NCBI RefSeq assembly: GCF_009497155.1
Contig: NZ_WINI01000003.1
Coordinates: 1-64,000, forward strand
Source: Glaciimonas soli
GTDB lineage: Bacteria > Pseudomonadota > Gammaproteobacteria > Burkholderiales > Burkholderiaceae_D
Direction of reading: 5' to 3'
DNA: 64,000 bases
The position numbers were made by a program, and so were the translations under genes. How positions within the stretch are numbered: position 1 is the first letter of the stretch; each line of letters starts with the position of its first letter. The notes below the pieces were generated by a model. It worked only from the letters and a program-made list of their open reading frames with translations. It searched no databases and was not told the DNA's origin. Shown here piece by piece: positions 1,108 to 55,045 of this stretch.

Positions 1108-1914
1108 ATGCTGCATCACCATTACTCAGGGATGTTTACAAACATGTTTTCCCACATTCGCTATAGCGCACAACAACTTATCAGCAAGTTGGCTACCAGC
1201 ATGCCAACTTGCTGCGCGTTATGTGCGCAAATTGGCAGCCAGGTTATTTGCCGAGGCTGTCAGCAGCATTATTTTTTGCAACGAACGTCACGCTGCAAAC
1301 AATGCGCAAACCCACTCCCTATAATAGAGAGCGACGACGCGGGCGCAACTACGCTATGCGGCGATTGCTTGAAGCAAGCGCAGGCCTTTGACGCAACTAT
1401 CGTCGCAGTAGACTACGCCGCACCTGTCGATCATTTGGTTTTAGCATTAAAATTCGGTAGCCAATTAGCGTTGGCACCGGTTTTTGCGAGTGCTTTACGC
1501 GACGCATTACTGCAGCAGTCGGTGCAAACTGGAAAAATAGACAACTTACCTGATGTGCTGACCGCTGTCCCGCTTGGGCCTGACCGCTTAATTGAGCGTG
1601 GATACAATCAAGCATTAGAGATTGCCAAACCGTTATCACTATTACTAGGGGTTCCTTTGCAGCATACGTTAATCAAACGTATCCATGACACACAACAACA
1701 AGCGAAATTACATCCGGAAGAACGTCATCGCAATTTACGTAGCGCCTTCGTCATCCCATATCCTGCCGTGACTCAGATTCGCGGTCGTCATATTGGCGTA
1801 ATCGATGATGTGATGACGACGGGTGCCACTTTGAATGAAATTGCCCACACACTTAAGCGTTTTGGCGCCAGCCGGGTTACAAATTTTGTGTTCGCCAGAA
1901 CCTTGCCCAAATAA
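1108..1914 (+). CDS. comF: ComF family phosphoribosyltransferase
   Basis: Protein of up to 268 residues with the ComF layout. An N-terminal zinc-ribbon-like cluster of cysteine pairs (CALC, CRGC, CKQC, CGDC) precedes a type I phosphoribosyltransferase domain whose PRPP-binding loop reads VIDDVMTTGAT near residue 230. ComF proteins are linked to DNA uptake in competent bacteria, and in many others the substrate is unknown. The start is uncertain: ATGs at 1108, 1132 and 1144 are all possible and none has a good ribosome site. The stop codon TAA shares its last two bases with the inverted-repeat element that begins at 1913. Confidence 0.85.
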   Translation: MLHHHYSGMFTNMFSHIRYSAQQLISKLATSMPTCCALCAQIGSQVICRGCQQHYFLQRTSRCKQCANPLPIIESDDAGATTLCGDCLKQAQAFDATIVAVDYAAPVDHLVLALKFGSQLALAPVFASALRDALLQQSVQTGKIDNLPDVLTAVPLGPDRLIERGYNQALEIAKPLSLLLGVPLQHTLIKRIHDTQQQAKLHPEERHRNLRSAFVIPYPAVTQIRGRHIGVIDDVMTTGATLNEIAHTLKRFGASRVTNFVFARTLPK

Positions 1915-2015
1915 GTGTTTTCAAAAAACTGTTTAGACTAGGCGCTCCGACGAAGGTAGTACTTAAGTACGGCGAGGAGAAGCAACAACGTATAAACAGT
2001 TTTTTGAGAACACTT
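1913..2015. repeat. Inverted-repeat element, copy 1 (MITE-like)
   Basis: Arms of about 26 bp (1913-1938 and 1990-2015) pair with few mismatches; their cores are CAAAAAACTGTTTA and its complement. TA precedes and follows the arms. The interior carries CCGACGAAGGTAGTAC, which recurs in the copy at 30079 and in degraded form in other copies. The left end overlaps the comF stop codon and the right end lies just before the trmL ribosome site. See also 16886, 30079, 31789, 54841 and 54956. Confidence 0.85.
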
Positions 2016-2030
2016 AAAAGGAGAAATATT

Positions 2031-2513
2031 TTGTTTCACGTCGTACTGGTAGAACCTGAAATTCCACCCAACACCGGTAATATTATCCGGCTGTGCGCCA
2101 ACACTGGCGTGCAATTGCACTTGATTGAACCACTGGGCTTTCCATTGGATGATGCGAAAATGCGCCGTGCCGGGCTCGATTATCACGATTACGCCACTAT
2201 GCAAGTCCATACGAATTGGGCCGCGTTTATGGAGGCAATGGAAAAAACAGAGAATTTTGATCCGCACCGCATGTTCGCTATGACCACGCACGGCTCCACG
2301 CCATTTGCGGATATCGCATTTCACCCCGGCGACATTTTCGTCTTCGGCTCGGAAACGCGTGGGCTAGATCCAACATTGCGCGCATCATTTGCATCGTCAC
2401 AACGCATTCGCTTACCGATGCGCCCCGACAATCGCAGTTTGAATTTATCGAATACGGTAGCGATCGTGGTCTATGAAGCCTGGAGGCAAAATAGCTTTAT
2501 TGGCGGTGCTTAA
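2031..2513 (+). CDS. trmL: tRNA (cytidine/uridine-2'-O-)-methyltransferase TrmL
   Basis: SPOUT-family methyltransferase of 160 residues that 2'-O-methylates the wobble base (position 34) of leucine tRNAs. The N-terminal HVVLVEPEIPPNTGNIIR and the C-terminal trefoil-knot motifs GSETRGL and LPMRPDNRSLNLSN are diagnostic. The start is taken as TTG at 2031 because a good ribosome site (AAAGGAGA) sits seven bases upstream; a further in-frame TTG at 2004 lies inside the repeat arm. The repeat element ends one base before the ribosome site, so a stable hairpin directly abuts the initiation region. Confidence 0.93.
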   Translation: MFHVVLVEPEIPPNTGNIIRLCANTGVQLHLIEPLGFPLDDAKMRRAGLDYHDYATMQVHTNWAAFMEAMEKTENFDPHRMFAMTTHGSTPFADIAFHPGDIFVFGSETRGLDPTLRASFASSQRIRLPMRPDNRSLNLSNTVAIVVYEAWRQNSFIGGA

Positions 2514-2579
2514 CATCAGATTGCTATAATCAAAATCAACTTACGAAAACTTACTTTCCTACCGCATACAAGGATTTTT

Positions 2580-3056
2580 ATGTCAGCACGCATTTCAAGC
2601 ATTATTACTCTGACTTTATGCTCGCTCGCTTTAAGCACCTCTGCTTTTGCACATGAATACACATTGGGAGCGCTGAAAATCAGCCATCCTTATGCACGAG
2701 CAACCGTTCCCGGCCAACCTAGTGGAGCGGCTTATCTGACGATAGAAAACACGGGAAAAAATAATGACAAGCTGGTGAGCTTAAGCTCCGCCGTTGCTGA
2801 ATCAGCCGGGATTCATAGCATGAGCATGGATGGCAATGTCATGAGAATGCGGGAAAAAAACGATCTTGAGTTGAAACCATCAACAACTATCAGCATGAAA
2901 CCCGGGAATGGTTATCACATCATGCTGACGGGTTTAAAGAAACCATTGACTGCCGGGGAAACCTTCCCACTGACTTTGAACTTTAAAAATGCAGGGAAAA
3001 TTGAAGTTCAAGTCGATGTTGAAGGCTCGCAAGCACCGGCATCGCATCAACATTAA
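2580..3056 (+). CDS. Periplasmic copper chaperone PCu(A)C
   Basis: Secreted protein of 158 residues with a signal peptide (cleavage after SAFA near residue 24). The PCu(A)C (DUF461) fold carries the copper ligands: the IHSMSMDGNVMRM segment gives a histidine and methionines, and a second His-x-Met occurs in GYHIMLTG. The family delivers Cu(I) to the CuA or CuB sites of cytochrome oxidase. The C-terminus adds a short His tail. No oxidase genes are nearby. Its TAA stop overlaps the stop of rfaE2 on the other strand, so both ends share four bases. Confidence 0.9.
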   Translation: MSARISSIITLTLCSLALSTSAFAHEYTLGALKISHPYARATVPGQPSGAAYLTIENTGKNNDKLVSLSSAVAESAGIHSMSMDGNVMRMREKNDLELKPSTTISMKPGNGYHIMLTGLKKPLTAGETFPLTLNFKNAGKIEVQVDVEGSQAPASHQH

Positions 3057-3541
3057 CGTTGCTGACGTACTTTAGATAATAATTTGCTGGTCGAGCGATC
3101 ATGTTCAAACGCGATCGCGACGACCTTGCCGCCATAGGCTAACACTGCTTGTCCTTCAGGAATCTCGTCCATCTTGTAGTCGCCACCCTTCACATAGATA
3201 TCAGGCTGCCCCTCCTGCACCACGCCTAATGCAGTATCCTCGTCAAACTCCACCACCAGGCTCACCGCTTCCAATGCTGCCAATACCGCCATGCGATCAG
3301 CGCAAGTATTGATTGGTCTATCATCACCTTTACCCAAACGTTTGACTGATGCATCAGTATTCACCGCCACCACTAACGATGCACCTTGCGCACGGGCTTG
3401 CGCCAAATACGTCACATGACCACGATGCAAAATATCGAACACCCCGTTAGTCAATACTACGGGTTGCGGCAAGTTCGCCATGCGCGCTTTCAATTCCGCG
3501 CGCGGGCAAATTTTCTGTTCAAAGCTGACCATCTTCATCAA
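3053..3541 (-). CDS. rfaE2: D-glycero-beta-D-manno-heptose 1-phosphate adenylyltransferase
   Basis: Nucleotidyltransferase of 162 residues with the signature TNGVFDILHRGHVTYL (HxGH class) near residue 32 and a C-terminal DRSTSKLL that closes the ATP site. It corresponds to the C-terminal half of E. coli HldE, which makes ADP-heptose for the LPS inner core. Here it is a separate gene, as usual in betaproteobacteria where kinase and adenylyltransferase are split. The kinase is not in the window. In-frame ATGs lie at 3541, 3538 and 3532. A terminator between it and the upstream gene suggests independent transcription. Confidence 0.93.
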   Translation of the reverse strand: MMKMVSFEQKICPRAELKARMANLPQPVVLTNGVFDILHRGHVTYLAQARAQGASLVVAVNTDASVKRLGKGDDRPINTCADRMAVLAALEAVSLVVEFDEDTALGVVQEGQPDIYVKGGDYKMDEIPEGQAVLAYGGKVVAIAFEHDRSTSKLLSKVRQQR

Positions 3542-3549
3542 ACCCTCAT

Positions 3550-3578
3550 AAAAAAAGCCGCAACAAACTGCGGCTTTT
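3550..3578 (-). terminator. Rho-independent terminator of the diiron-protein gene
   Basis: A perfect 10-bp stem (AAAAGCCGCA with TGCGGCTTTT) and a 6-base loop is followed on the minus strand by a run of Ts. It lies 20 bp past the stop of the 3601-4461 gene and just before rfaE2. Confidence 0.88.
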
Positions 3579-3600
3579 GATTATCCAACCATCGATTTTG

Positions 3601-4461
3601 TTAAGCAGGCACAACAGGTGCTGTAGTTGCAGCCAGACGATTGACGATTTCTTTACGATAACGATTCAATTCTTGCACCGTCTCAAAGCTGCGCTCAAAC
3701 AGCAACGACATATTATGCAAAATCCGGTCAACAACTTTCTTTTCCCAGACACCATCAAATTTAATTTGATCATCCAACCAACGCTCCAGCCATTCAGGAT
3801 CGGGTAAGCGACTTTGTACGGTGTCATTCGGGAACAGTGATTGGTTTACATGCAAATTGGTAGGATGTAACGGCTTCTCAGTCCGACGCGCCGAAGCCAT
3901 TAATACGCCGATTTTGGCGAAAGCGGCAGAAGCACTATCACCTACTTCGTTTAACGCTTTTTTCATGTAGCGCAGATAGGCACCACCATGACGCGCCTCA
4001 TCCTGGCTGATCATTTTATAAATTTGCTTGATCACTGGCTCAGTGTGCCAATCGGAAGCACAGCGGTACCAATGATTGAGACGAATTTCGCCGCAAAAAT
4101 GCATCATCAGCGTTTCCAATGCCGGCGCTGGATCAAATTCAAAACGCACGTTATCGAGTTCTGCTTCAGTCGGCACCATCTCTGGGCGGAAGCGACGTAG
4201 ATATTCCATCAACACCAATGAATGCTTTTGCTCTTCAAAGAACCATACAGACATAAACGCGCAAAAATCACTGTCGCCGTGATTGTCACGCAAAAACATC
4301 TCAGTCGCAGGTAAAGCCGACCATTCAGTAATCGCATTCATTCGTATTGTTGTCGCCTGTTCATCTGTCAGCAGAGACGCGTCGAACTGATCCCACGGAA
4401 TATCGGTTTCCATGTTCCAACGGACTTGCTCAAGCGATTTAAACAATTCTGGATACAGCAT
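3601..4461 (-). CDS. Ferritin-like diiron protein
   Basis: Predicted helical diiron carboxylate protein of 286 residues. Two ExxH-type iron motifs are visible, FFEEQKHS near residue 75 and SQDEARHG near 150, with a further glutamate in CGEIRLNHWYR. This arrangement is that of the ferritin-like superfamily that includes acyl-ACP desaturases and oxygenases. The substrate is not known and I do not name one. Start MLYPELFKSLEQVRW is preferred over the longer in-frame reading because AAGG lies seven bases upstream. It is followed by a clear terminator, so it is probably monocistronic. Confidence 0.8.
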   Translation of the reverse strand: MLYPELFKSLEQVRWNMETDIPWDQFDASLLTDEQATTIRMNAITEWSALPATEMFLRDNHGDSDFCAFMSVWFFEEQKHSLVLMEYLRRFRPEMVPTEAELDNVRFEFDPAPALETLMMHFCGEIRLNHWYRCASDWHTEPVIKQIYKMISQDEARHGGAYLRYMKKALNEVGDSASAAFAKIGVLMASARRTEKPLHPTNLHVNQSLFPNDTVQSRLPDPEWLERWLDDQIKFDGVWEKKVVDRILHNMSLLFERSFETVQELNRYRKEIVNRLAATTAPVVPA

Positions 4462-4616
4462 ACATACCTTAAGAGTGAATGACGGGTTAAGCTGACATAT
4501 CAAGATAAATCAGAGTTAAGTCGGGATTTTACCAATTTTTTGATAAACGACCTATTTTGATACATTGTCATCGCATTTTATGCCGTGTATTACAGTTGAA
4601 AAAATAGATAAATAAT

Positions 4617-5351
4617 TTATTTTTTGACATTTCTTGTGCTGCTTGAACGCGCACCTGTTTTGCTTGCTGCCGCGCCAGACTTTACAGCCGATTTCACTGG
4701 CGATTTGCGCTTGGCTACAGGCGCAGCACGAGATGCAGATTTGCTAGGTTTCTTTACTGATTTAACTGCTGGCTTATCCTCTGCCTCGGCTGCCGTGGCC
4801 ATGGTTTTATCTGCTGCAACCACGCTGCCGACGACCTGCTTAAATTGACTCTGCAGCATATCCCACCACACATTCGCATTGGCAGCCGCCTGTTGCTCAG
4901 CATGAGCATCTTTGGTGGATGCTTGCTCAGCTTGTTCTGCAGCGGCAGGCGATGCAGGTGGCTCAGGTGTTTTCGTCGCCTCGGCAGGTTGACCAAATGA
5001 AAATGATGGTGTCATCCATGGAAAAGCTTCTGCGCCTTCTTTGGTTGCGGTTTGTCCGTCTACGGCATCCGGCACTTTCATCGCTCCCATTGCTTGCAAT
5101 GCTGACAATGTAGCGTTCTGCACTTCCAAAGCTTGTATTGTGGTGCGCAACATGTTCAGGTTCATGCTCAACCAACCTTCTACGGCTTTCAAATCCGTGA
5201 TTTTTTTATTAATTTCTTCTACCGATAAAGTCGGCACCACCATGCCGGGAACTCCCATATTGCTCCACATTTTTTTGATGAAATCGAGGCTGCCGCTCAT
5301 GGCATCGGCACTAGGAATGCCGGTCATATTTGGTATCGGTGAATTAATCAT
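4617..5351 (-). CDS. phaM: PhaM-like polyhydroxyalkanoate granule protein
   Basis: Protein of 244 residues with an N-terminal SLDFIKKMWSNMGVPG segment and a helix around residues 50-90, as in the PhaM family. The C-terminal third is rich in Lys, Ala and Ser (SVKKPSKSASRAAPVAKRK), the histone-H1-like tail that in Ralstonia PhaM binds DNA. PhaM activates PHB synthase and tethers granules to the nucleoid. The start at 5351 has the ribosome site AAGGAGATGTG. The gene follows the binding-protein gene by 14 bp, which may mean cotranscription, but no synthase or phasin is nearby. Confidence 0.75.
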   Translation of the reverse strand: MINSPIPNMTGIPSADAMSGSLDFIKKMWSNMGVPGMVVPTLSVEEINKKITDLKAVEGWLSMNLNMLRTTIQALEVQNATLSALQAMGAMKVPDAVDGQTATKEGAEAFPWMTPSFSFGQPAEATKTPEPPASPAAAEQAEQASTKDAHAEQQAAANANVWWDMLQSQFKQVVGSVVAADKTMATAAEAEDKPAVKSVKKPSKSASRAAPVAKRKSPVKSAVKSGAAASKTGARSSSTRNVKK

Positions 5352-5365
5352 CACATCTCCTTGTT

Positions 5366-6619
5366 TCAGTTTGGTCGTTGCATCTTGCAACTGGTCGGTA
5401 ACGCTGTGGTCGCAGAGGGGAAATAGCGCTCAGTTTTAAAACCGTAACCACTGCCTTCATTATCAAAACGAATGCCGCCATCACTTAATTTTTGCATCAC
5501 AGCGACATACAGCGGCTGTATCAACTGATGGTCACTGGCGCGCATCGTCGCGTCATGAAAACGACTCTTATATTGTGCGCCTTCCAGCGCTTTGGCGACA
5601 GCCACAGCATCAGTGCTGTGCGCTTTTTCGATAGCCGTCACTAGCATATCTACCATCACATCCATGCGCAAAAACAAATAATCGTCTTTAGGCTGCGGAT
5701 AGCGTACGCGGAAGTTGCGATAAAAAGCATCGCTTGCATCCCCGCCGACATTAGGATGCCATTCGGCGACGGCACGAACACTGCCAACGCCAGCATCACC
5801 AATCGCGGCTGGCGCACCTAAGCTATTCGCATAAAAAGTATAAAACTTAACATTGAGCCCGGCATCCTTCGCCGCCTTCACCAGCAACGTTAAATCATTT
5901 CCCCAGTTCCCCGTAATCACTGTATCGGCACCGCTGGCGCGAATTTTGGCGATATATGGCGCAAAATCTTTAACCTTGCCGACAGGATGAAGTTCATCTC
6001 CAGCGATCACGATGTCTGGCCGTGCCACCGCTAATTGTTGGCGCGCGGCCTTGGCAACCTGGCGTCCGAAACTGTAATCCTGGCCAATCAGATAAACCCG
6101 CTTGGCGCGGCTATCATTCTTAATCACCTGTACCAGCGCGTGCATACGCATGTCCGCATTCGCATCAAAACGGAAATGCCAGAAACTACATTGTTCATTA
6201 GTCAGTACAGGATCAACTGCGGAGTAATTCAGAAACAACACGCGATTATCCGGCATGCGCTGATTATGTTTATTCACTGCTTCTAACAGCGCGGCTGCCA
6301 CGGCAGAGCTATTGCCCTCCAATACAAAAGGAATGCGTTGATCCGTCAGTTTTTTAAACTGTTGCAACGCATCCTCAACCCCTTGCATGCTATCGAACAC
6401 TACCAGTTCCAGTGGATGACGGCCATCGGGCAACTTGACGCCACCTCGCGCATTGACTTGCTCAATCGCGAAACGCAAATTGTTTTCAACCGATACACCT
6501 GCATTAGCAAAAGCGCCAGACATTCCTTCTATCATGCCAAGACGAATTGGTTCAGCAGCCTGAACCACACTGGCAACCAGACACATCAGTAAAACTAAAA
6601 GGATTTTTCGACAGTGCAT
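5366..6619 (-). CDS. Branched-chain amino-acid type ABC transporter substrate-binding protein
   Basis: Periplasmic binding protein of 417 residues with a signal peptide ending VVQA-AEP near residue 22. The type I periplasmic-binding fold of the LivJ/LivK group is indicated by RLGMIEGMSGAFANAG at the mature N-terminus and by VYLIGQDYSFGRQVAKAA and DTVITGNWGNDLTLLVKAA further on. No permease or ATPase genes adjoin, so it is an orphan receptor whose ligand (amino acid, amide or aromatic compound) cannot be told from sequence. It ends 14 bp before phaM. Confidence 0.87.
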   Translation of the reverse strand: MHCRKILLVLLMCLVASVVQAAEPIRLGMIEGMSGAFANAGVSVENNLRFAIEQVNARGGVKLPDGRHPLELVVFDSMQGVEDALQQFKKLTDQRIPFVLEGNSSAVAAALLEAVNKHNQRMPDNRVLFLNYSAVDPVLTNEQCSFWHFRFDANADMRMHALVQVIKNDSRAKRVYLIGQDYSFGRQVAKAARQQLAVARPDIVIAGDELHPVGKVKDFAPYIAKIRASGADTVITGNWGNDLTLLVKAAKDAGLNVKFYTFYANSLGAPAAIGDAGVGSVRAVAEWHPNVGGDASDAFYRNFRVRYPQPKDDYLFLRMDVMVDMLVTAIEKAHSTDAVAVAKALEGAQYKSRFHDATMRASDHQLIQPLYVAVMQKLSDGGIRFDNEGSGYGFKTERYFPSATTALPTSCKMQRPN

Positions 6620-6759
6620 TGGGATACCATGAAAATAGATAAAGTTTTGCTATTTTACGTCGACAGATAATCATTAACCAACGTTTAAATCACTTCAAAC
6701 ATATGGCCCAAACGGCGTTGCGCAGGACAAATCCCGGCCTATACGTTTACACTACGCAC

Positions 6760-7983: not shown

Positions 7984-8009
7984 TTACACAGTTGCCTGAG
8001 AAAGACCGC

Positions 8010-8789: not shown

Positions 8790-8808
8790 CTTAATCACCT
8801 TCATCACT

Positions 8809-16885: not shown

Positions 16886-16979
16886 TAGGGCTGACGCAAA
16901 ATTGTTCCAGCAAGGCATATCGACGAAAAGCGTGCGACCAGAAGATATAACGCCGCTGGGGCGGCTTTGCGCAAGTCCG
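16886..16979. repeat. Inverted-repeat element, copy 2 (MITE-like, diverged)
   Basis: Left arm 16887-16911 (GACGCAAAATTGTTCCAGC) pairs imperfectly with 16955-16978. The interior has ATCGACGAA and AGATATAA, both close to copy 31789. It sits in the hpd leader, about 28 bp upstream of the start codon and just before the ribosome site. Confidence 0.75.
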
Positions 16980-17741: not shown

Positions 17742-18062
17742 TTACTTCGACATATTGTCCTTTGACATATTATCTTTCGTCATATCGTCCTTGGACATAT
17801 TGTCTTTTGACATACTGTCTTTTGCGGCTGCAGGATTGTGTTTCTTGACATACTTCTTATTGCTGCTCTTAGCAGGCATTTTCGAAGTGTCTTTTCCCAT
17901 TGCATCTGTCGACATAGTGCCTTTATCCATAGCGTCCGGTTTGGACATGGTGTCTTTAGACATATTATCTTGTGCCATAGGCGTCGCGCTTTGTGCAAAT
18001 ACGCTGGCGCTCATCAACATCATCCCTGCAGCAACTAAAAAAGTAGAAATAGCTTTATTCAT
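17742..18062 (-). CDS. Secreted low-complexity protein with DNMSK repeats
   Basis: Small protein of 106 residues. A signal peptide (MNKAISTFLVAAGMMLMSAS, cleavage after VFAQ) precedes a mature part made of five-residue Met/Ser/Lys/Asp repeats of the form DxMSK (DNMSK, DTMSK, DSMSK, DDMTK), about a dozen, with a basic interruption KKYVKKHNP. Family not recognised. Similar short 'pentapeptide MXKDX' proteins occur in Burkholderiales without known role. Methionine-rich periplasmic proteins can bind copper or act as oxidant sinks, but nothing here proves it. Start 18062 has GGAGACC upstream; a terminator follows. Confidence 0.75.
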   Translation of the reverse strand: MNKAISTFLVAAGMMLMSASVFAQSATPMAQDNMSKDTMSKPDAMDKGTMSTDAMGKDTSKMPAKSSNKKYVKKHNPAAAKDSMSKDNMSKDDMTKDNMSKDNMSK

Positions 18063-18167
18063 ATTGGTCTCCAAATGTGAAAATGGCGAAAGTGCCACAG
18101 ATATCAGCGAATGCTTTTAGTGCAGATGCAAAAGCACGTAGACGATTTTCAATCTACATCGCACATC

Positions 18168-23112: not shown

Positions 23113-23267
23113 GATTACATCATTAAGTAAGGTCGAATAATCATTTTGAAAATACCCTCGTCATTCCCGCGAACGCGGGAATCCATCTTACGCAACTTGG
23201 ACCCCGCGTTCGCGAGGATGACAGCGGTGCTTTTCATATCGATTATTTCGAATTACTTACATGATTA
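23113..23267. repeat. Composite palindrome with CGTCATTCCCGCG core, copy 1
   Basis: The inner part (23159-23224) is the widespread CGTCATTCCCGCGAACGCGGG repeat with its inverted partner. Outside it, about 45 bp on each side also pair: ATTAAGTAAGG-CGAATAATCA on the left matches the complement of the right arm near 23236-23267. The same outer arms surround the second copy at 39225-39377, so the mobile or amplified unit is the full 155 bp rather than the core alone. It fills the gap between the GST start and the efflux operon end. Confidence 0.8.
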
Positions 23268-30078: not shown

Positions 30079-30173
30079 AAGTGTGTCCAAAAAACTGTTT
30101 AGAACAGGTGCTCCGACGCAGGCAGTACGACAACGTGAGGCAACAGTGTATAAACAGTTTTTTGCACAGACTT
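30079..30173. repeat. Inverted-repeat element, copy 3 (MITE-like)
   Basis: Arms 30079-30105 and 30148-30173 share CAAAAAACTGTTTA with copy 1913. The interior CCGACGCAGGCAGTAC differs from that copy at two of 16 positions. TA stands outside both ends. It fills most of the gap between the divergent slt and fthC genes, so both promoters must lie inside or around it. Confidence 0.85.
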
Positions 30174-30920: not shown

Positions 30921-31769
30921 CTATTTCAGGCGCTGCCAGATTGCCGTAGTCGCAGCTGAATTATTCAATGTATAAAAATGCAGTCCCGGAGCACCACCAG
31001 CAAGCAAACGTTCGCACATCTGTGTGACCACATCAAGGCCAAACGCACGTATTGAATCAGTGTCATCGCCGTATGACGCTAACTTGAGACGGACCCAACG
31101 CGGGATTTCCGCGCCACACATATCGGAGAATCGCATCAACTGCGAACAGTTGGTGATCGGCATAATCCCGGCAATCACCGGTACCGTTGCGCCTAATCTT
31201 TGCGCCTCATCAACAAAACGGAAATAGGCATCCGAATTGTAAAAGTACTGTGTGATCGCGCCATCTGCACCGGCTTTTACTTTAGCGACAAAACGCTGAA
31301 CATCATCTTGCGGCGACTTCGCTTGTGGATGCATTTCTGGATAAGCGGCCACTTCGATATGAAACCAGTCACCGGTTTCTGCGCGAATAAATTCAACTAA
31401 TTCATTGGCATAACGAAATTCACCCGAAGAGAAATCCATGGCGCCATAACCGCTTGGCAAATCACCGCGTAACGCTACCAGGCGTTTGATGCCATTATCT
31501 TTGTATTGCGTCAGTATCTCCCGCAATGACGCACGCGAACTGCCAAGACAAGACAAATGCGGCGCGACGTCGTGACCTTCACGACGAATATCGAGCACGG
31601 TATCGAGTGTACCTTTTTGTGTGGAGCCACCGGCACCAAACGTGACCGAAAAATAACTCGGATGCAGTTCCGCCAATTTAGCGCGTGTTACCCGCAACTT
31701 CTCAACGCCTTCGGGTGTCTTTGGCGGGAAAAACTCTATGCTGAAATTTTTTTGTTTGGTTTGCTTCAC
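30921..31769 (-). CDS. metF: 5,10-methylenetetrahydrofolate reductase
   Basis: FAD-dependent TIM-barrel enzyme of 282 residues making 5-methyl-THF for methionine synthesis. Typical segments are FSIEFFPPKTPEG at the start, FSVTFGAGGS near residue 42, LRGDLPSGYG near 102, ITQYFYNSDAYFRF near 185 and PVIAGIMPI near 208. The start codon is GTG, with GAGAGATATC upstream. It is downstream of ahcY and the holin-like gene on the same strand; an inverted-repeat element fills the short gap before it. Confidence 0.95.
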   Translation of the reverse strand: MKQTKQKNFSIEFFPPKTPEGVEKLRVTRAKLAELHPSYFSVTFGAGGSTQKGTLDTVLDIRREGHDVAPHLSCLGSSRASLREILTQYKDNGIKRLVALRGDLPSGYGAMDFSSGEFRYANELVEFIRAETGDWFHIEVAAYPEMHPQAKSPQDDVQRFVAKVKAGADGAITQYFYNSDAYFRFVDEAQRLGATVPVIAGIMPITNCSQLMRFSDMCGAEIPRWVRLKLASYGDDTDSIRAFGLDVVTQMCERLLAGGAPGLHFYTLNNSAATTAIWQRLK

Positions 31770-31788: not shown

Positions 31789-31888
31789 AGGACTTACACA
31801 AAATTGTTCCAGCGGGTTTACCGTTCTCTATCGACCAAGGTAGTTCCTGGGAGATATAAGCCAGCTGGAACAGTTTTTAGCGTGTCCT
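31789..31888. repeat. Inverted-repeat element, copy 4 (MITE-like)
   Basis: Arms 31789-31813 (ACACAAAATTGTTCCAGC) and 31864-31888 pair with about six mismatches. The interior ATCGACCAAGGTAGTTC and AGATATAA link it to the other copies. Its right end supplies the last two bases of the holin-like gene's TAG stop, and its left end lies 20 bp from the metF start. Confidence 0.82.
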
Positions 31889-32320: not shown

Positions 32321-33751
32321 TTAATAGCGATAGTGATCTGGCTTGTACGGACCAATTTGCTTCACACCGATATAAGCAGCTTGCTCTTCAGTCAATGTGC
32401 TCAATTGCGCATTGAGTTTTTTCAACTGCAAGCGTGCTACTTTTTCATCCAAATGCTTCGGCAATGTATACACGCCGATTGGATAAGCTTTCGTGTTTGC
32501 ATACAATTCGATCTGCGCAATCGTTTGATTGGCAAACGACGAGCTCATCACATACGATGGATGGCCAGTGCCACAACCCAGATTGACCAAACGACCTTCA
32601 GCCAACAAGATAATGCGTTTGCCATCAGGGAAAATGATGTGATCGACTTGCGGCTTGATGTTTTCCCATTCGTATTGTTTGAGCGCGGCGACTTCGATTT
32701 CATTGTCGAAGTGACCGATGTTGCAGACAATCGCCTGGTCTTTCATCTTGGCCATGTGCGCGTGCGTGATGACGTGATAATTGCCTGTACAAGTGACAAA
32801 AATATCGCCATGCTCTGCCGCGTAATCCATCGTGACAACGCGGAATCCTTCCATCGCAGCCTGTAACGCACAGATAGGATCAACTTCCGTTACCCATACT
32901 TGCGCAGACAAAGCACGCATGGCTTGTGCCGAACCTTTACCAACATCACCGTAACCGGCGATGACGGCAACTTTACCGGCGATCATCACGTCCGTTGCAC
33001 GTTTGATGCCATCGACCAGCGACTCACGGCAGCCATACAGATTATCGAATTTGGATTTAGTCACTGAATCATTGACGTTAATCGCAGGGAAAGCCAGTTT
33101 GCCTTCTTTGTGCATTTGATATAAACGATGCACGCCAGTAGTGGTTTCTTCGGTCACGCCTTTGATTTGTACCAAGCGCGATGAATACCAATCAGGAGAA
33201 GTCGCCAGTTTTTTCCTGATCGAATTGAACAGGCAAATTTCTTCTTCTGAAGTCGGGTTGTTTAATACCGACCCATCTTTTTCTGCGCGAGTGCCGAGAT
33301 GCAGCAACAAAGTCGCATCGCCACCATCATCAAGAATCATATTTGCTTGCGCATTCTTCTCGTCGCCTGGCCATTCAAAAATGCGGTGTGTGAATTCCCA
33401 GTAATCGTCCAGCGATTCACCTTTGAATGCAAATACTGGCGTACCTGCAGCAGCAATCGCCGCAGCAGCATGATCTTGAGTGGAATAGATATTGCAAGAT
33501 GCCCAACGCACTTTGGCGCCCAACGCTTCCAGTGTTTGAATCAACACGGCAGTCTGGATGGTCATATGAATGGAACCGGTGATACGCGCACCTTTGAGCG
33601 GTTGCGCAGCGGCGAATTCTTCGCGGATCGCCATCAGCCCTGGCATTTCGGTTTCAGCAATGCGGATTTCTTTGTCGCCCCAGCTTGATAAGCTGATATC
33701 GGCAACGTGGTAGTCTTTAGTAGTAGAAGAGTTCATTACAGCGGCGTTCAT
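32321..33751 (-). CDS. ahcY: Adenosylhomocysteinase
   Basis: NAD-dependent enzyme of 476 residues splitting S-adenosylhomocysteine into adenosine and homocysteine. [20 protein letters not shown] (substrate domain, near residue 55), [20 protein letters not shown] with [11 protein letters not shown] (Rossmann NAD site, near 255-285) and the C-terminal KPDHYRY are diagnostic. ATG 33751 is used: GGAGG sits five bases before it, while a GTG one codon earlier is too close. The leader carries an SAH riboswitch. It has the roughly 40-residue insert of the long bacterial form. Confidence 0.97.
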
Positions 33752-33778
33752 CACGCCCTCCTTTCGTTGGAAAAAAGT

Positions 33779-33868
33779 AACGTGAGCGCAGTTGCAAAAT
33801 ACCTCAGTACCAAGCCTGGCAAAATGGGCTCGTACCCATTCCGTCGCAGCGCTCCTTGGCGTGAAGAC
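33779..33868 (-). promoter_or_regulatory. SAH riboswitch upstream of ahcY
   Basis: Read on the minus strand, the leader contains the conserved blocks of the S-adenosylhomocysteine riboswitch in order: AAGGAGCGCTGCGACGG (33843-33859), GCCAGGCTTGG (33810-33820) and AACTGCGCTCACG (33781-33793). GAGCGC and GCGCTC can pair to form the helix that closes the ligand site. The aptamer ends 28 bp before the ahcY start, close to the ribosome site. In known examples SAH binding turns expression on. Confidence 0.93.
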
Positions 33869-39224: not shown

Positions 39225-39377
39225 CTAAGTGATCCAACGTAATCAATTTTAAAAATCCGTCATTCCCGCGGACGCGGGAATCCATGTCAAACGTAAGATG
39301 GATCCCCGCGTTCGCGGGGACGACGCAGATTGGATTGAGGTCATTTTCATTAAACTGATTACGCTGCCTTACTTAAT
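39225..39377. repeat. Composite palindrome with CGTCATTCCCGCG core, copy 2
   Basis: The inner repeat (39258-39325) is CGTCATTCCCGCGGACGCGG with its inverted partner. Outer arms CTAAGTGATCC-CGTAATCA (39225-39245) and the complement of 39354-39377 match each other and the arms of the copy at 23113. A weak bulged GCCGGGTTG/CAACCGGG hairpin, possibly the dapF terminator, precedes it. It occupies the gap between the convergent dapF and Sel1 genes. Confidence 0.8.
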
Positions 39378-47563: not shown

Positions 47564-47589
47564 TCTCTTCTGCCTCTCAGCTACCAATA

Positions 47590-47632
47590 TCTGCTTAGCC
47601 TAAAGTTACGCTGCACAAAGTAAGGCTAAGCA
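47590..47632 (+). terminator. Possible dksA terminator
   Basis: TGCTTAGCCT and AGGCTAAGCA pair exactly over 10 bp across a 21-base loop, about 30 bp past the dksA stop. Only a loose T-rich stretch follows, so termination is probable but not textbook. Confidence 0.5.
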
Positions 47633-47990
47633 GCATATCTCTTTATTTTTCCAAACGTTACACTATCTGTCGCACCAACCGGGTCGGCTTGCTTCATGGC
47701 GCCTTGAATTCATGCGGCCATCATCTTTATATCTACTGTTACAACATTTATGCATAATTTATAGTCGTTTAATTACTATAATTGCGTTGTGGCATGTTAC
47801 TCTATAGAAATGCACTATCGTGCTTTTCGTGCGTGCCATTCCAGCATTTCTAATATGCAGTCAGAACTTAAATGTTCACCAGAACATGCTCTAGTTAACA
47901 GCACCGCTGTATAGTTTCGCTGTATAGCTTATTTAGGCTTAGTTTTGGAATTTAGCACCGATCGCCAACCACAAAGACATTAGGATTAAC
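47633..47990. other. Upstream region of the STAS protein
   Basis: About 360 bp without a gene. A TATAAT box occurs near 47776, without a good -35. CGCTGTATAG is directly repeated at 47905-47914 and 47918-47927 (13-bp period), possibly a regulator site. Nothing else recognised. Confidence 0.4.
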
Positions 47991-49403: not shown

Positions 49404-49515
49404 AGCGCACTTGCTGACATCAACACGCCGCCGAGATTATATTTTCAATAATTTTGCATTGATGTTAACTTGATACGGCCCTCACCCACCTCCTCTTAAA
49501 TTCAAAAAATCACCG

Positions 49516-49543
49516 CTTGCAATCAAGCTCGCTGCCCCCATTT
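49516..49543 (+). promoter_or_regulatory. Sigma-32 (heat-shock) promoter of hslVU
   Basis: CTTGCAA (49516-49522), a 13-bp spacer, then CCCCATTT (49536-49543). The RpoH consensus is CTTGAAA-N13-15-CCCCATNT, so only one base deviates. It lies about 88 bp upstream of hslV, a known heat-shock operon. Confidence 0.85.
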
Positions 49544-49630
49544 TTGTGAGAACATCGGGTTAAACCGATCAGTAACCACATCTGAGCACGCTCGATTTTC
49601 GGGCAACGCATGTTTTTTGAGGTAAGCAAA

Positions 49631-50167
49631 ATGGAACAATTTCACGGCACTACCATTCTTTCTGTGCGACGCGGAAACATCGTAGCACTGGGCGGTGATG
49701 GTCAAGTCACGCTGGGCAATGTAGTGATGAAAGGAACCGCACGCAAAGTGCGCAAACTTTATCAAGGTAAAGTTTTGGTCGGCTTCGCTGGTGGCACTGC
49801 CGATGCTTTCACTCTGCTCGATTTGTTTGAAGCCAAATTAGAGAAACACCAAGGCCATCTGATGCGCGCGTCAGTCGACTTAGCCAAAGAATGGCGCACT
49901 GATCGTATGTTACGTCGTCTGGAAGCCATGTTACTGGTCGCAGATCGCGATAGCACTCTGGTTATTACCGGCAATGGCGATGTGTTGGAACCAACTGACG
50001 GCATCGGTGCCATCGGCTCCGGCGGCACTTTCGCTCAGTCAGCGGCTAAAGCATTGCAAGAAAATACCGATTTATCGCCAGCAGACATTGTCAAGAAATC
50101 GTTGGTGATCGCTGGCGAACTTTGCATTTACACCAATTTGTCGCACATCATTGAGACCTTGGATTAA
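49631..50167 (+). CDS. hslV: ATP-dependent protease subunit HslV
   Basis: Proteasome-beta-like peptidase of 178 residues forming the HslVU complex. MEQFHG is removed to expose the catalytic N-terminal Thr of [22 protein letters not shown] and the ending SHIIETLD match the family. ATG 49631 follows GAGGTAAGCAAA, better than an in-frame ATG seven codons earlier. It heads the heat-shock operon with hslU. Confidence 0.97.
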
Positions 50168-50245
50168 GCCCGGGCATCACGGCCGACCTCTCATTTTCTC
50201 GATCATTTTGATGTGATCGGTTGCACACTTACAGAAGCTAACATC

Positions 50246-51601
50246 ATGAACATGACACCCCAAGAGATTGTTTCCGAACTCGATAAACACGTAGTTGGTC
50301 AGGATAGGGCAAAACGTGCTGTCGCCATCGCCCTGCGTAATCGCTGGCGCCGGCAGCAGGTCGCAGAGCCGCTGCGCCACGAAATCACCCCTAAAAACAT
50401 TTTGATGATAGGCCCGACCGGCGTCGGAAAAACCGAGATTGCTCGCCGTCTGGCCAAACTTGCGGATGCGCCTTTTATCAAAGTCGAGGCGACCAAATTC
50501 ACAGAAGTCGGCTACGTTGGCCGTGATGTTGAAACCATCATCCGCGATTTGATCGACATCGGCATTAAACAAACCCGCGAATCGGAAATGCGCAAAGTAC
50601 GCACTCGTGCAGAAGATGCCGCTGAAGATCGCGTACTGGATATTTTGCTGCCGCCGGCACGTGATTTCGGCTTTCATCCAGAACAAAATGAAATCGCGCC
50701 TCAAGGCAGCGAAAGCAAAGATAGCAACACCCGCCAAACTTTCCGCAAACGCCTGCGCGAAGGCTCGTTGGATGATAAAGAAATTGAAATCGAAATTGCC
50801 GAAGCCAGTGCGCAAATGGAAATCATGGCGCCACCGGGCATGGAAGAAATGACTGAGCAAATCAAATCCATGTTTTCTGGCATGGGTAATCAGCGCAAGA
50901 AAAGCCGCAAAATCAAAATCAAGGAAGCGCTCAAGCATTTGATTGAGGAAGAAGCCGGCAAACTGCTTAACGAAGATGAATTGAAACAAAAAGCCATTTT
51001 CAACGTAGAGCAAAATGGCATCGTTTTCCTCGATGAAATCGACAAAATTGCGACGCGCTCGCAAAATAGCGGCGGTGCCGATGTTTCGCGCGCTGGCGTA
51101 CAGCGTGATTTGCTACCGTTGGTTGAAGGTACGACTGTCAGTACCAAATACGGCATGATCAAAACCGACCACATTTTATTCATCGCATCCGGTGCGTTCC
51201 ATCTGGCCAAACCATCGGATTTGATTCCTGAACTGCAGGGTCGTTTTCCGATTCGCGTAGAACTGGAATCACTATCGATTGCTGACTTTGAACGTATCCT
51301 GACCAGCACCGATGCATGCCTCACCACGCAATACGAAGCTTTGCTGGCGACTGAAGATGTGAAGCTGGAGTTCACGCCTGAAGGCATTAAACGTCTGGCG
51401 GAAATCGCTTATTCAGTCAATGAAAAAACTGAAAACATTGGGGCACGACGACTGCATACAGTGATGGAAAAAATGCTGGAAGAAATTTCTTTTGCGGCGA
51501 CCAATACCACCGAAACGACACTTAAAATCGATGGCGCTTATGTCGATCAACGACTCGGCAGTTTAGCGGTGAATGAAGACTTATCGCGTTACGTTCTGTA
51601 A
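50246..51601 (+). CDS. hslU: ATP-dependent protease ATPase subunit HslU
   Basis: AAA+ unfoldase of 451 residues that feeds HslV. Start [20 protein letters not shown]; Walker [10 protein letters not shown] near residue 56; [17 protein letters not shown], the pore motif GYVG; Walker [11 protein letters not shown] near 260; sensor 2 GARRLHT near 400; C-terminal YVL that docks into HslV. An intermediate I-domain occupies roughly 110-240. It follows hslV by 78 bp and shares the sigma-32 promoter. Confidence 0.97.
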
Positions 51602-51612
51602 ATCAACGCAAA

Positions 51613-51661
51613 GTAGGATGGGTCGCCATTGGGTGACTCATGCGGCGATACCCATCCTATA
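51613..51661. repeat. Inverted repeat TAGGATGGGT/ACCCATCCTA
   Basis: TAGGATGGGT (51614-51623) pairs exactly with ACCCATCCTA (51650-51659); an inner CGCC/GGCG adds a second short stem. It lies between the convergent hslU and gpsA ends and could end either transcript, but no T-run follows. It resembles the common GTAGG(G/A)TGGGT extragenic repeat; see also 61902. Confidence 0.65.
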
Positions 51662-51672
51662 TCCAAAACCAT

Positions 51673-52692
51673 TTACGCCGATTCCCCACGAGGATCACGC
51701 GCCAATAAATTCTCTACCATCGTCCGTGGTGCAACGCCATCAAACAAAACGCCAGCCACCGCTTGGGTAATCGGCATCTCAATTTGATACTGTTGCGCTA
51801 ATCTGCGTACCGCCGCTGCGCAACGCACACCTTCGGCAACATGGCCTAACTCAGCGACTACGGTATCCAAACTTTTACCTTGCGCCAAACCCAAGCCGAC
51901 TTTTCGGTTACGTGACAAATCACCGGTGCAGGTGAGTATCAAATCGCCCATCCCCGACAAACCCATAAAAGTTTCGCTGCGCCCGCCGAGTGCAATACCG
52001 AGGCGTGTAATTTCCGCCAGGCCACGTGTGATCAATGCAGCGCGTGCATTCAATCCCAACCCAAGGCCATCGGCAACTCCCGTTGCAATCGCCAAAATGT
52101 TTTTAACCGCACCGCCAACCTCGACCCCCACCATATCATCGGTCGAATAGACGCGAATCTGGCCGCCATGCACCGCCGATACCACGCATTGCGACAACGC
52201 CGCAGAATCGGTTGCAATAGCCAATGCGCAAGGCAAACCACGCGCAACTTCCTGTGCAAATGAGGGACCGGAAAGCGCGCCGACAGGAATGGTCTTTCCT
52301 AATACTTCATCGACAATTTGATGCGGCAATAAACCGGTTTCTTCTTCAAACCCTTTACACAGCCACACGATATTGGGGATAGCCGAACCACGTAGTTGCT
52401 GCGCCAAAGAACGCAATCCGGCAACCGACGACGCAACAATCAATAAATTACTTTCGACTTTCCCGGATTGCAATGTGGCGCCACTGATGTGGCCAACAGC
52501 TTGCTCAAAGTCGGCGGTCAAGCGCAACGTATCGGGTAGTGCAAAACCGGGCAAAGCTGCATTTTCACGCTGTTTTGCAGCAGCTGCCATCGCCGCTTGA
52601 TTACGCCCCCAGAGCACAACATGATGGCGTGGTGCCAATGCAATCGCTAGCGCGGTTCCCCATGCACCTGCACCGAGTATGGTGATGTTCAT
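51673..52692 (-). CDS. gpsA: Glycerol-3-phosphate dehydrogenase [NAD(P)+]
   Basis: Enzyme of 339 residues reducing DHAP to sn-glycerol 3-phosphate for phospholipid synthesis. The Rossmann start [19 protein letters not shown], the [14 protein letters not shown] loop, the catalytic Lys in [17 protein letters not shown] near 190, and [20 protein letters not shown] near 250 are diagnostic. Start MNITILG is chosen over an ATG three codons earlier. It is downstream of the SH3 gene and secB; a terminator separates it from the former. Confidence 0.96.
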
Positions 52693-52721
52693 TGCTGTCA
52701 TTATGTTCAGTTCTGCAAAAA

Positions 52722-52760
52722 GAAAATGACGACAACCATATCATGATTGTCGTCATTTTC
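52722..52760 (-). terminator. Terminator of the SH3-domain gene
   Basis: GAAAATGACGACAA pairs exactly over 14 bp across an 11-base loop. On the minus strand the stem is followed by TTTTC and more Ts. It lies about 90 bp past the SH3 gene stop and 30 bp before gpsA starts. Confidence 0.85.
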
Positions 52761-52851
52761 GATAATGATACGATGTTGTTAAGACAGTACTTTAGGTATG
52801 GCAAAGAGGACTCGCTCTGCTGGAGCAGCTTTACGTACGTCCTATATTAAT

Positions 52852-53307
52852 TTAGCCACCCCACACGTCGACTGCTTTAACATAACCAGTCTGCCCATCG
52901 CGATGGCGTACTTTATACCAGCCTGACGTCGTCGGCTCAACCAGTTCAAGCAACACGCCTTTGTCAGCGGTAAACACCGGGCTTGCGCTGTCGTTTGGAC
53001 TACTGCGAATTTTTGCGTTACTTACCCTAACCTGGACATTATGCCTGTTGTCCAAAGCTTTCGACTGCACCCAGGACAAATCTCCACTGGCATCACGTAC
53101 TTTAGTCCACTCGCCATAAGTCAATACCACTTCGACCGGCATGCCACGCGGCGCAACAAAAACGCGACGCCCTTTTTCCGAAGGGGCATCATACAAAATC
53201 ACTGGCGATGCACCAACCGTTTTGTAATCGAGCGCATGCGCTACGCCAACCAAACCCATGCTTGCCAAAACTAGCGCCAAGGCCGCACTTATGCGTACAA
53301 ATTTCAT
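52852..53307 (-). CDS. Secreted SH3b-domain protein
   Basis: Protein of 151 residues with a signal peptide (MKFVRISAALALVLASMGLV, cleavage near AHA) and two bacterial SH3-like repeats: VILYDAPSEKGRRVFV...EWTKVRDASGDLSWV and VRVSNAKIRSSPNDSASPVF...GWYKVRHRDGQTGYV. Such domains bind peptidoglycan or peptides; the target is unknown. ATG 53307 follows GGAG. It lies between secB and gpsA, as usual in Burkholderiales. Confidence 0.88.
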   Translation of the reverse strand: MKFVRISAALALVLASMGLVGVAHALDYKTVGASPVILYDAPSEKGRRVFVAPRGMPVEVVLTYGEWTKVRDASGDLSWVQSKALDNRHNVQVRVSNAKIRSSPNDSASPVFTADKGVLLELVEPTTSGWYKVRHRDGQTGYVKAVDVWGG

Positions 53308-53405
53308 TCGAATCAACTCCGGTTACTACGTCACGCTGCTCAGACTACTTTCGCCTGAACAGCGTGCTCACGCGATGCGCGCAAATGGTTCCAACGGACG
53401 ATTAA

Positions 53406-53924
53406 TTAGTTAATCGCTTGGCTACCTTCAACTTTGACGCTGTCTTTACTACCTTGTTGCTCTGCCATCGCCTGCAAACGCTGTTGGTAGAACACTTCGA
53501 AGTTGATTTCAGCCAAATGGATAGGAGGGAAACCTGCACGTGTAATCACGTCAGCGATATTGGCACGCAGGTATGGATACACGATATTCGGACAGCCGAT
53601 ACCCAACAGTGGATCAAGCTGCTCTGCCGGAATGTTGCGCACTTCGAAAATACCAGCTTGTTTACCTTCAACCAGAAAAGCGACTTTATCTTTCACTTTA
53701 GCTGTCACAGTAATTGTCACCGTCGATTCAAAAATGCCTTCAGCCAATGCTTCGGCACCGACATCAACAGCAACTTCGATTTGCGGAGCATCTTGTTCCA
53801 GGAAAACACCTGGAGAATTTGGTTGCTCTAACGACATATCTTTAAGATAAACGCGCTGAATCTGAAACACAGGCTGTTGATCAGCCGCAGCGTTGTCTTC
53901 TGTTTTTTTAATTTCTTCTGCCAT
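53406..53924 (-). CDS. secB: Protein-export chaperone SecB
   Basis: Homotetrameric chaperone of 172 residues that keeps precursors unfolded for Sec[20 protein letters not shown] near residue 20, [14 protein letters not shown] near 107 and [20 protein letters not shown] near 130 are the family motifs. The N- and C-terminal tails (about 18 and 20 residues) are Glu/Lys/Gln-rich. AAAGAG precedes the ATG. It follows grxC and rhodanese genes on the same strand. Confidence 0.96.
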
Positions 53925-54029
53925 AAAACTCTTTCGGTAAATTTTTTAAATCAATAGTGTGCTGCGAGCTGCATACTATCCATGAACTTAATCGGTGACG
54001 CAAGAAATATCAGCGGCCGATGGATGATC

Positions 54030-54305
54030 TCAAGAACCTTGCAACATAGGCAATAATTTACCGCTATGATCAAGTGCACTCAAATCATCAAAACCACCGA
54101 CATGCGTGTCACCAATATAAATTTGCGGAACGGTGCGGCGGCCGGTTTTTTCCATCATTTCGTTGCGCTGTTGCGGATCAAGGTCAATACGCACTTTTTC
54201 GATATTTTCCACGCCACGCGATTTCAATAACCGCTCGGCCTGAATGCAATATGGGCAGACAGCAGTGCTGTACATTAAGACGCGCGGGGTACCATTTTCG
54301 CTCAT
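54030..54305 (-). CDS. grxC: Glutaredoxin 3
   Basis: Dithiol glutaredoxin of 91 residues with active site CPYC in MYSTAVCPYCIQAERLL near residue 17, the cis-proline RTVPQIYIG near 58 and GGFDDLSAL near 70 (glutathione contacts). It overlaps the rhodanese gene upstream by four bases (ATGA type), so translation is coupled. secB follows after 105 bp. Confidence 0.95.
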   Translation of the reverse strand: MSENGTPRVLMYSTAVCPYCIQAERLLKSRGVENIEKVRIDLDPQQRNEMMEKTGRRTVPQIYIGDTHVGGFDDLSALDHSGKLLPMLQGS

Positions 54306-54748
54306 GCTTTCACCTTATTTCCGGTCTTGTTTTCGACTTTACTTTCTTTGCTGATCGTCGGCAGACCTTGAGTTTGCCAGGCTGCCATACCGCCTTCCAG
54401 GTTATATACCTGCTCGAAGCCGGCGGCTGACAACTGGGAAGTTGCCTTAGCCGATTGCACGCCAGTCTGGCAAACGACAATCACGTTTTTTGCTTTAAAT
54501 TTATCGATTTCGACCAGACGCTGCGCCAAATCCTTTAGCGGGATGTTTTTTGCATCCAACAAATGGGCGGCAGCAAAACTATCCGCATCACGCACATCAA
54601 GCACCAACGACTTGCCTTGGTTAATTAATTGTGTTGCTTGCAATGTTGTCACTTTGTTGCCTCGCCCACGTAACATGGGAAATAACAATGCGCCACCTGA
54701 CAAAACAACCAATCCGAGTAAAAAAATATTATCAATCAAGAATTTCAC
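54302..54748 (-). CDS. Membrane-anchored rhodanese-like protein
   Basis: Protein of 148 residues: an N-terminal membrane helix (LIDNIFLLGLVVLSGGALLF) and one rhodanese domain with the sulfur-carrying Cys in VVCQTGVQSAKA near residue 91. A Lys-rich tail ends the chain. Similar to YibN, always near grxC and secB. Sulfurtransferase activity is likely; the acceptor is unknown. It overlaps grxC by four bases. Confidence 0.9.
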   Translation of the reverse strand: MKFLIDNIFLLGLVVLSGGALLFPMLRGRGNKVTTLQATQLINQGKSLVLDVRDADSFAAAHLLDAKNIPLKDLAQRLVEIDKFKAKNVIVVCQTGVQSAKATSQLSAAGFEQVYNLEGGMAAWQTQGLPTISKESKVENKTGNKVKA

Positions 54749-54840
54749 AGTAATCCAATGGTTTTAGTTAACCTCAGCATTATAAAATAGAAGCTGGGCA
54801 GAAGCTGTAAAGTGTCTAACTTACATTTACCGTATTATTC

Positions 54841-54945
54841 TGGACTTCTGCAAAATTGTCCCGGCAACGCGTTTACTAAACCTTGTTGACGATATTTCCG
54901 GTACGGTAGTCATTCCGTTGTCGGGGCGATTTTGCAGAAAGCGAC
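54841..54945. repeat. Inverted-repeat element, copy 5 (MITE-like)
   Basis: TTCTGCAAAATTGTCCCGGC (54846-54865) pairs with 54918-54938; the whole unit is 105 bp. The interior has GGTACGGTAGTCA and GTTGACGA, looser versions of the shared core. TA is not evident at its ends. It stands in tandem with copy 6, ten bases away. Confidence 0.75.
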
Positions 54946-54955
54946 TTTCCTGTTT

Positions 54956-55045
54956 AGGATTTACGTAAAATTGTCCCCTCAAAGCGTATCGAGCGCCCGC
55001 AGTACGGTTGTGCTGCGCAGTTGGGGGAGGTTTTACGTAAATCCT
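54956..55045. repeat. Inverted-repeat element, copy 6 (MITE-like)
   Basis: AGGATTTACGTAAAATTGTC (54956-54975) pairs with 55026-55045, nearly perfectly in the outer 15 bp. TA flanks both ends. The interior contains CGCAGTACGG. It lies 28 bp upstream of gpmA, in tandem with copy 5. Confidence 0.82.

What the first reader, a model, noticed from the sequence alone, without database searches (positions are those of the whole stretch)
1913..55045. Six copies of a 90-105 bp inverted-repeat element, probably one MITE family
Copies lie at 1913-2015, 16886-16979, 30079-30173, 31789-31888, 54841-54945 and 54956-55045. Two arm types occur (CAAAAAACTGTTTA and GCAAAATTGTTCC), yet interiors share a YCGACGAAGGYAGTAC-like core and, in two copies, AGATATAA. 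TA stands on both sides of at least three copies (1913, 30079, 54956) and on one side of 31789, as expected of TA-targeting transposons of the IS630/Tc1 type. No copy encodes protein. All are intergenic and most lie just upstream of a ribosome site.
Basis: partly seen in the sequence, partly recalled or inferred. Interest (0 to 1): 0.8.

Follow-up and report, generated by a model that had tools for sequence, protein, structure and literature searches.

The report
Correia-type mini-transposons, all facing one way
The six repeats are real and belong to the same family as the Correia elements known from Neisseria; in this genome nearly all of about eighty scored copies point the same way relative to DNA replication, which would surprise for small transposons with matching ends.

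Summary
Observation confirmed: six 90-105 bp inverted-repeat elements lie where stated. Both arm types surround one ~55-nt core, TAGGCGnnCCGACGCAGACAGTACnnnnGTACGGCAAGGnGGnnGCAACgaCGCC (degenerate in 54841 and 54956). They are mobile: one copy elsewhere in the genome sits inside another with a TA duplication, and the 31789 site is empty in 4 of 4 congeners. The core is that of Correia elements (CREE/NEMIS): a model built from 25 own-genome copies has 104 matches in a N. gonorrhoeae record, and 25 of 60 genomes searched, own included, have matches. It may equal the published repeat BRE (not checked). 'One MITE family, TA target' holds; an IS630/Tc1 origin is not supported. B arms equal ends of IS701-like insertion sequences, another arm type resembles DUF4096 (IS5-type) ends, A arms match none found. 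New: arms differ freely yet stay complementary, and orientation follows replication. Copies agree with local GC skew 77:2 in this genome and 22:4 in a genome of another family, but not significantly in N. gonorrhoeae (24:17) or three congeners. Fork-coupled insertion with the core as polarity signal is inferred, not shown.

The parts
1912..2016 (+). type A copy, TA at both ends; arm TAAGTGTTTTCAAAAAACTGTTTA, core CCGACGAAGGTAGTAC
   Evidence: R1 118.8 bits
16886..16980 (+). type B copy (arm AGGGCTGACGCAAAATTGTTCC), shortened core with AGATATAA
   Evidence: R2 84 bits
30078..30174 (+). type A copy, TA at both ends
   Evidence: R1 91.9 bits
31788..31889 (+). type B copy between the MTHFR-family gene (30921-31769) and the next ORF; site empty in four congeneric genomes
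   Evidence: (R2 62.5 bits)
54840..54945 (+). degenerate type B copy, first of an adjacent pair
   Evidence: R2 69.6 bits
54955..55046 (+). type B copy, second of the pair, TA at both ends; by coordinates the intergenic region is 182-198 bp shorter in G002-G004
   Evidence: (R2 70.7 bits)

Best explanation
These are non-autonomous mobile elements of the Correia (CREE/NEMIS) family. Shown: a ~55-nt strand-specific core lies between ~24-bp complementary arms; one copy was inserted at a TA that it duplicated; a site is empty in relatives; arms differ between lineages but stay complementary. Inferred: the arms are the end sequences of whatever DDE transposase (IS4/IS5/IS701 kind) moves the element in trans, so that the core has come to ride between ends of different insertion sequences. 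Shown in two genomes: copies lie with the core strand on the negative-GC-skew strand, taken as the lagging-strand sequence. Inferred: insertion is coupled to the replication fork and, since the two ends are nearly alike, the asymmetric core (or its strand-specific hairpin) sets the orientation.
For: Family: R1, built from 25 own-genome type A copies, has 104 matches in N. gonorrhoeae record NZ_CP119140.1 (best E 9.1e-14) and 9 in a Cupriavidus megaplasmid; blastn of a type A copy finds 34 places in that record at E<=10, the best 81% over 58 nt, E 5e-4. Mobility: nested insertion at C23:327560-327790; empty site at 31789 in 4 of 4 congeners. Arms: 91.4% of 1092 pair cells standard, all 20 pairs of the arm helix change on both sides, covariation score 0.727 against 0.184 shuffled; mean information 1.29 bits in the core, 0.42 in the arms. 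Transposase ends. Orientation: own genome 77 agree, 2 disagree (26:0 on C23, 20:2 in the C1 sample, 31:0 in stretches of other contigs), and the strand changes on C1 where GC skew changes sign, between 148 and 192 kb; G059 22:4. Gene direction does not explain it: on C23 copies are + between two - genes (11 of 27) and between two + genes (5 of 27) alike.
Against: No transposase with A-type ends was found, and the only IS701-like match in the own genome is a decayed fragment (50 bits, cut-off 250). Orientation is not significantly biased in G001 (8:4), G002 (6:3), G003 (11:9) or N. gonorrhoeae (24:17), and the BRE paper says its repeats are not co-oriented with the fork (PMC3110155). Leading and lagging are inferred from GC skew alone. 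The core strand also folds better, so later loss of the other orientation is possible. Most scanned stretches outside C23 were chosen around known copies, and tandem or nested copies were counted singly, so the counts are not fully independent.
Confidence: 0.5

Rival explanations
1. Insertion is random in orientation, but copies whose stronger hairpin falls on the lagging-strand template are deleted or selected against.
For: With DNA parameters the core strand folds better in 32 of 39 own copies (p 1e-4) and 45 of 49 copies from elsewhere; with RNA parameters in 24 of 39 (p 0.07) and 38 of 49. By GC skew the core strand would be the leading-strand template, as this predicts.
Against: Seven of 39 own copies fold better on the other strand with DNA parameters; the six of them in scanned stretches (L011, L018, L026, L029, L034, L035) still have the agreeing orientation. 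Similar hairpins show no significant bias in N. gonorrhoeae or three congeners.
Confidence: 0.27
2. The core strand is a functional RNA hairpin (for example an RNase III substrate, as reported for NEMIS), and selection on the RNA explains the conservation and perhaps the orientation.
For: Unmatched arm pairs on the core strand are G.U rather than A.C: 70 to 17 in A3 and 72 to 39 in 39 own copies. RNase III cleavage of transcripts with Correia elements is reported (passages of PMC10969869 and PMC2649163).
Against: Orientation does not follow the direction of flanking genes on C23, so read-through cannot set it. No Rfam family over gathering score on the elements in the window; in ten own loci at E<=1 only a chance-level hit (mir-2831, E 0.1, far below its gathering score) overlaps an element. 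Single-stranded DNA would also favour G.T over A.C. No expression data were seen.
Confidence: 0.25
3. A single-strand mechanism (HUH/Y1 or a retro-type one) moves the hairpin, as in IS200/IS605.
For: Orientation that follows replication is described for IS200/IS605 (PMC5371812, passages); strong hairpin with strand-specific pairing.
Against: A TA duplication and ends shared with DDE insertion sequences point to duplex DNA; that IS200/IS605 makes no target duplication is recalled. Y1 transposases were not searched for.
Confidence: 0.08

Closest known systems
Correia elements / CREE / NEMIS (Neisseria)
   Same: Core homologous by blastn and covariance model; commonest lengths 104-108 and 153-157 bp, target TA with some CA, no protein, mobilising mechanism not determined (PMC2649163, passages)
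   Different: Arms differ from the Neisseria inverted repeat as seen in L179; strong orientation bias here, none significant in N. gonorrhoeae (24:17)
BRE, Beta-proteobacterial repeat element (PMC3110155, section 14 read)
   Same: ~90 bp, mostly intergenic, tandem copies, signs of mobility, in Polaromonas, Rhodoferax, Acidovorax, Bordetella and others; host range overlaps that
   Different: Sequence only in a figure, so identity not verified; stated not to be co-oriented with replication; section 14 names NEMIS only as another small repeat
IS701-like insertion sequences (NF049921, ISPlag1 kind)
   Same: B arm TAGGACTTACGCAAAA is their end: exact 35 bp from a transposase over the curated cut-off in G055 and at the ends of a 1.12-kb IS on a Paraburkholderia plasmid
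   Different: They carry a transposase; no Correia core was looked for inside them systematically
DUF4096 (IS5-type) insertion sequences
   Same: In G018 the IS end GAGCGTCTAACAAAATG matches an arm of a Correia-type element at 14 of 17
   Different: Autonomous; only 2 of 30 fetched loci have such ends on both sides
RUP, ERIC and other TA-targeting bacterial MITEs
   Same: Size, palindromy, TA site (recalled)
   Different: No sequence relation tested

Membership tests
Correia / CREE / NEMIS | conserved core sequence | tested here: met
   R1 has 104 matches in a N. gonorrhoeae record; best blastn place 81% over 58 nt
Correia / CREE / NEMIS | mobile, TA target duplicated | tested here: met
   one nested copy; empty site at 31789 in 4 of 4 congeners, where the TA itself cannot be read
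Correia / CREE / NEMIS | the 26-bp Correia inverted repeat | tested here: not met
   arms differ from those of L179 (compared by eye); so same family by core, not CREE in the narrow sense
Correia / CREE / NEMIS | promoters, IHF site, RNase III processing | not tested
   no expression data
BRE | BRE consensus sequence | not testable with these tools
IS630/Tc1-derived MITE | IS630-type transposase (DDE_3) in the own genome | tested here: not met
   0 matches at E<=0.01; relatives not searched for it
IS701-derived MITE (B arms) | ends equal to those of an IS701-like IS | tested here: met
   2 of 5 plasmid relatives examined (L322, L323) showed no such ends
IS701-derived MITE (B arms) | intact IS701-like helper in the own genome | tested here: not met
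   one decayed fragment
IS701-derived MITE (B arms) | same target duplication as the IS | tested here: inconclusive
   flanks of L321 read TCTA and TAAC around the ends; not settled
REPIN / RAYT | REP pair with GTAG tag and a Y1 transposase | not tested
   not searched

The most novel reading that the evidence does not exclude
The Correia core is an independent parasitic module: a strand-specific hairpin that borrows the ends of unrelated DDE insertion sequences and couples their insertion to the replication fork, giving polarity to an otherwise nearly symmetrical element.
Probability: 0.25. Interest if true: 0.85.

Novelty: new variant of a known kind. Interest (0 to 1): 0.62.

Why it matters
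What moves Correia elements is described as not determined (PMC2649163, passage). Copies whose arms equal the ends of known insertion sequences name candidates that can be tested. A 77:2 orientation bias in an element with nearly symmetrical ends makes it possible to ask directly what reads its polarity, insertion at the fork or later loss.

Tried and rejected
IS630 origin: no DDE_3 match in the own genome. DDE_Tnp_1 transposases of the own genome: 6 matches; end repeats of the kind GTTGCACAAATC were found for three of them (L172-L174), none convincing for the other three, and no A or B arm with up to 2 mismatches in any of the six loci. Own DUF4096 copy L274: no convincing ends and no arm match; the second own match (C27:24695) was not fetched. 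Rfam: nothing relevant. Phages: no match to one B copy; plasmids: 4 records for that B copy at E<=1 and 6 for one A copy at E<=10. attC/integron and REPIN readings were thought of and dropped without a search. A MAFFT alignment of the empty site failed because three of four loci lie on the other strand; the blastn alignment replaced it. Artefact of the candidate cap: tested by scanning C23 whole on both strands, not the cause.

Counting rules and dropped rows. Orientation: places with E<=1e-3, the better strand of each place, local skew under 0.01 set aside (C23 336906; G059 1, G001 2, G002 1). The first count of C23 (27:0) took the contig's skew as negative throughout; with local 20-kb skew it is 26:0 with one set aside, hence 77:2. 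Dropped: C23:147932 (strands within 1.3 bits, slightly favouring -), three weak places with E > 0.02 (window 44844 -, C23:354195 +, C23:104266 both strands), and one N. gonorrhoeae place present in two overlapping stretches counted once. L114:17029, a near-tie, is one of the two disagreements. One search used 27 intervals, one of them (268450) only a partial blastn hit. A3 keeps one reverse-strand echo row (L059).
Full report
What is there. The six elements lie at the stated coordinates. The window is contig C23:1-64000 of a 4.27-Mb genome in 30 contigs. Two arm types occur in the window, but in an alignment of 39 own-genome copies both surround the same core. By eye the A arms of the genome fall into at least three variants.

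Family. A covariance model (R1) built from 25 type A copies of this genome has matches in 25 of 60 genomes, the own one included, with 62 matches there; that call scored at most 66 candidates per genome and lists only part of the matches. R1 also has 104 matches in a 2.17-Mb N. gonorrhoeae record labelled a plasmid, by its size the chromosome, and 9 in a Cupriavidus metallidurans megaplasmid. The published count of CREE in strain FA1090 is 123 (PMC2649163, passage). blastn with one A copy finds 34 places in that record at E<=10, the best 81% over 58 nt. I therefore place the elements in the Correia family by core. The Correia end repeat is absent here, so the narrow definition of CREE is not met. 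The ~90-bp BRE of Bordetella and other Betaproteobacteria (PMC3110155, section 14 read) may be the same thing, but its sequence is only in a figure.

Anatomy. Across 50 matches from 49 loci the core carries 1.29 bits per column and the arms 0.42, yet 91.4% of pair cells are standard pairs and all 20 pairs of the arm helix vary on both sides. No shuffle of 500 reaches the pairing, the number of doubly changed cells or the covariation score; the number of pairs with a double change (23) is reached by 23 of 500. Sliding the partners by 1-3 columns drops pairing to 35-43%. The alignment was fitted to the R1 structure, which favours pairing. Unmatched arm cells on the core strand are G.U 70 times and A.C 17 times; in own copies 72 and 39. 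A duplex-DNA end requirement alone would not tell these apart. Some matches are longer (181 and 177 nt in G000, about 155 nt in N. gonorrhoeae); one own case (C28:357075-357249) has its extra sequence between the two halves of the core.

Mobility. At C23:327560-327790 an element sits in another copy; taking it out with one TA restores a continuous outer copy. At 31789 the own flanks, joined without the element, align straight through in G001-G004, 4 of 4; the TA itself cannot be read there because the flanks have diverged. At 54841/54956 the intergenic region is 198, 198 and 182 bp shorter in G002, G003 and G004 by coordinates; G001 has an element there in the opposite orientation.

Which transposase. 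The own genome has no DDE_3 match. B arms: the exact 16-mer TAGGACTTACGCAAAA occurs in 10 of 60 genomes, mostly in short elements. In G055 it lies 35 bp from an IS701-like transposase over the curated cut-off (323.5 bits, one stop inside), the only such match over the cut-off in 60 genomes. In G028 it follows a transposase piece that NCBIfam calls IS701-like below the cut-off (122.6 against 250 bits on 114 aa). A 1.12-kb IS with these ends lies on a Paraburkholderia plasmid (L321). Of five plasmid relatives examined, three share the end motif (L321, L324, L325) and two do not (L322, L323). C arms: 2 of 30 fetched DUF4096 loci (L267, L277) have TAGAGCGyCTAACAAAATG-like ends on both sides; in G018 such an IS and a Correia-type element with a matching arm (14 of 17) occur together. 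A arms: none found. The mobiliser in this genome remains unknown; its IS701-like match is a decayed fragment.

Orientation. C23 was scanned whole on both strands: 27 places with a clear strand, all with the core on +; blastn on the joined contig gives 30 clusters, each with its best hit on +. With local 20-kb skew 26 agree, none disagree and one is set aside. On C1 the skew changes sign between 148 and 192 kb; the three copies left of it are on -, those right of it on +, except 878549 and a near-tie. Over all scanned stretches of G000 the count is 77 agreeing, 2 not. In G059, of another family and with other arms, it is 22:4. In G001, G002, G003 and N. gonorrhoeae it is 8:4, 6:3, 11:9 and 24:17, none significant. 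Genes called on C23 by a simple script are 149 on + and 221 on -, and copies keep the + orientation between two + genes (5 of 27) and between two - genes (11 of 27); 6 lie between divergent genes, 5 overlap the called 5' end of a - gene, and none lies between convergent genes, which make up 37 of 228 intergenic regions of 60 bp or more.

Mechanism. The two ends of each copy are nearly alike, so whatever sets the orientation is likely to read the asymmetric core or the strand-specific fold. Orientation that follows replication is described for Tn7 (TnsE), IS200/IS605 and several IS families whose transposase binds the sliding clamp (PMC5371812, passages; the primary paper was not held). I think fork-coupled insertion by a DDE transposase the likeliest reading (0.5 for the whole statement), ahead of later loss of the other orientation through its hairpin, for which the stronger fold of the core strand speaks. 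Genomes without bias may hold older copies or be rearranged; this is a guess. In the listings of eight paper searches and the passages I saw, no such bias is mentioned for Correia elements; the word 'orientation' does not occur in the three Correia or MITE papers looked into (PMC5039591, PMC10969869, PMC2649163). The library holds open-licence papers only, and the main Correia promoter paper was not held.

Noticed in passing
window 33777-33863 (-): SAH riboswitch above the Rfam gathering score, upstream of ORF 32321-33754.
   Followed up: no
window 23159-23186 and 39258-39285: A second palindromic repeat, CGTCATTCCCGCGnACGCGGGAATCCAT, with inverted partners.
   Followed up: no
window 17746-17829: 15-bp tandem repeat that lies inside two overlapping ORFs on opposite strands, 17742-18098 (-) and 17755-18120 (+).
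   Followed up: no
L100:7541-7790 (C23:327541-327790): One element nested in another at a TA.
   Followed up: yes
L328 (G000:C28:585351-585626): Decayed IS701-like transposase fragment in the own genome.
   Followed up: partly
L177: A Pseudanabaena plasmid carries a short element with AGGACTTACGCAAAA ends but a different interior.
   Followed up: partly
L131:5133-5456 (G003): Three neighbouring copies in the same orientation, as the BRE paper describes for its repeat.
   Followed up: no
L266 (G008): A DUF4096 IS has ends TAAGTGACAGTTTAAAAACTG, loosely like A arms; not a match by the test.
   Followed up: partly
contig C23: None of 27 copies lies between convergent genes; by the simple gene calls each is on the 5' side of at least one gene.
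   Followed up: partly
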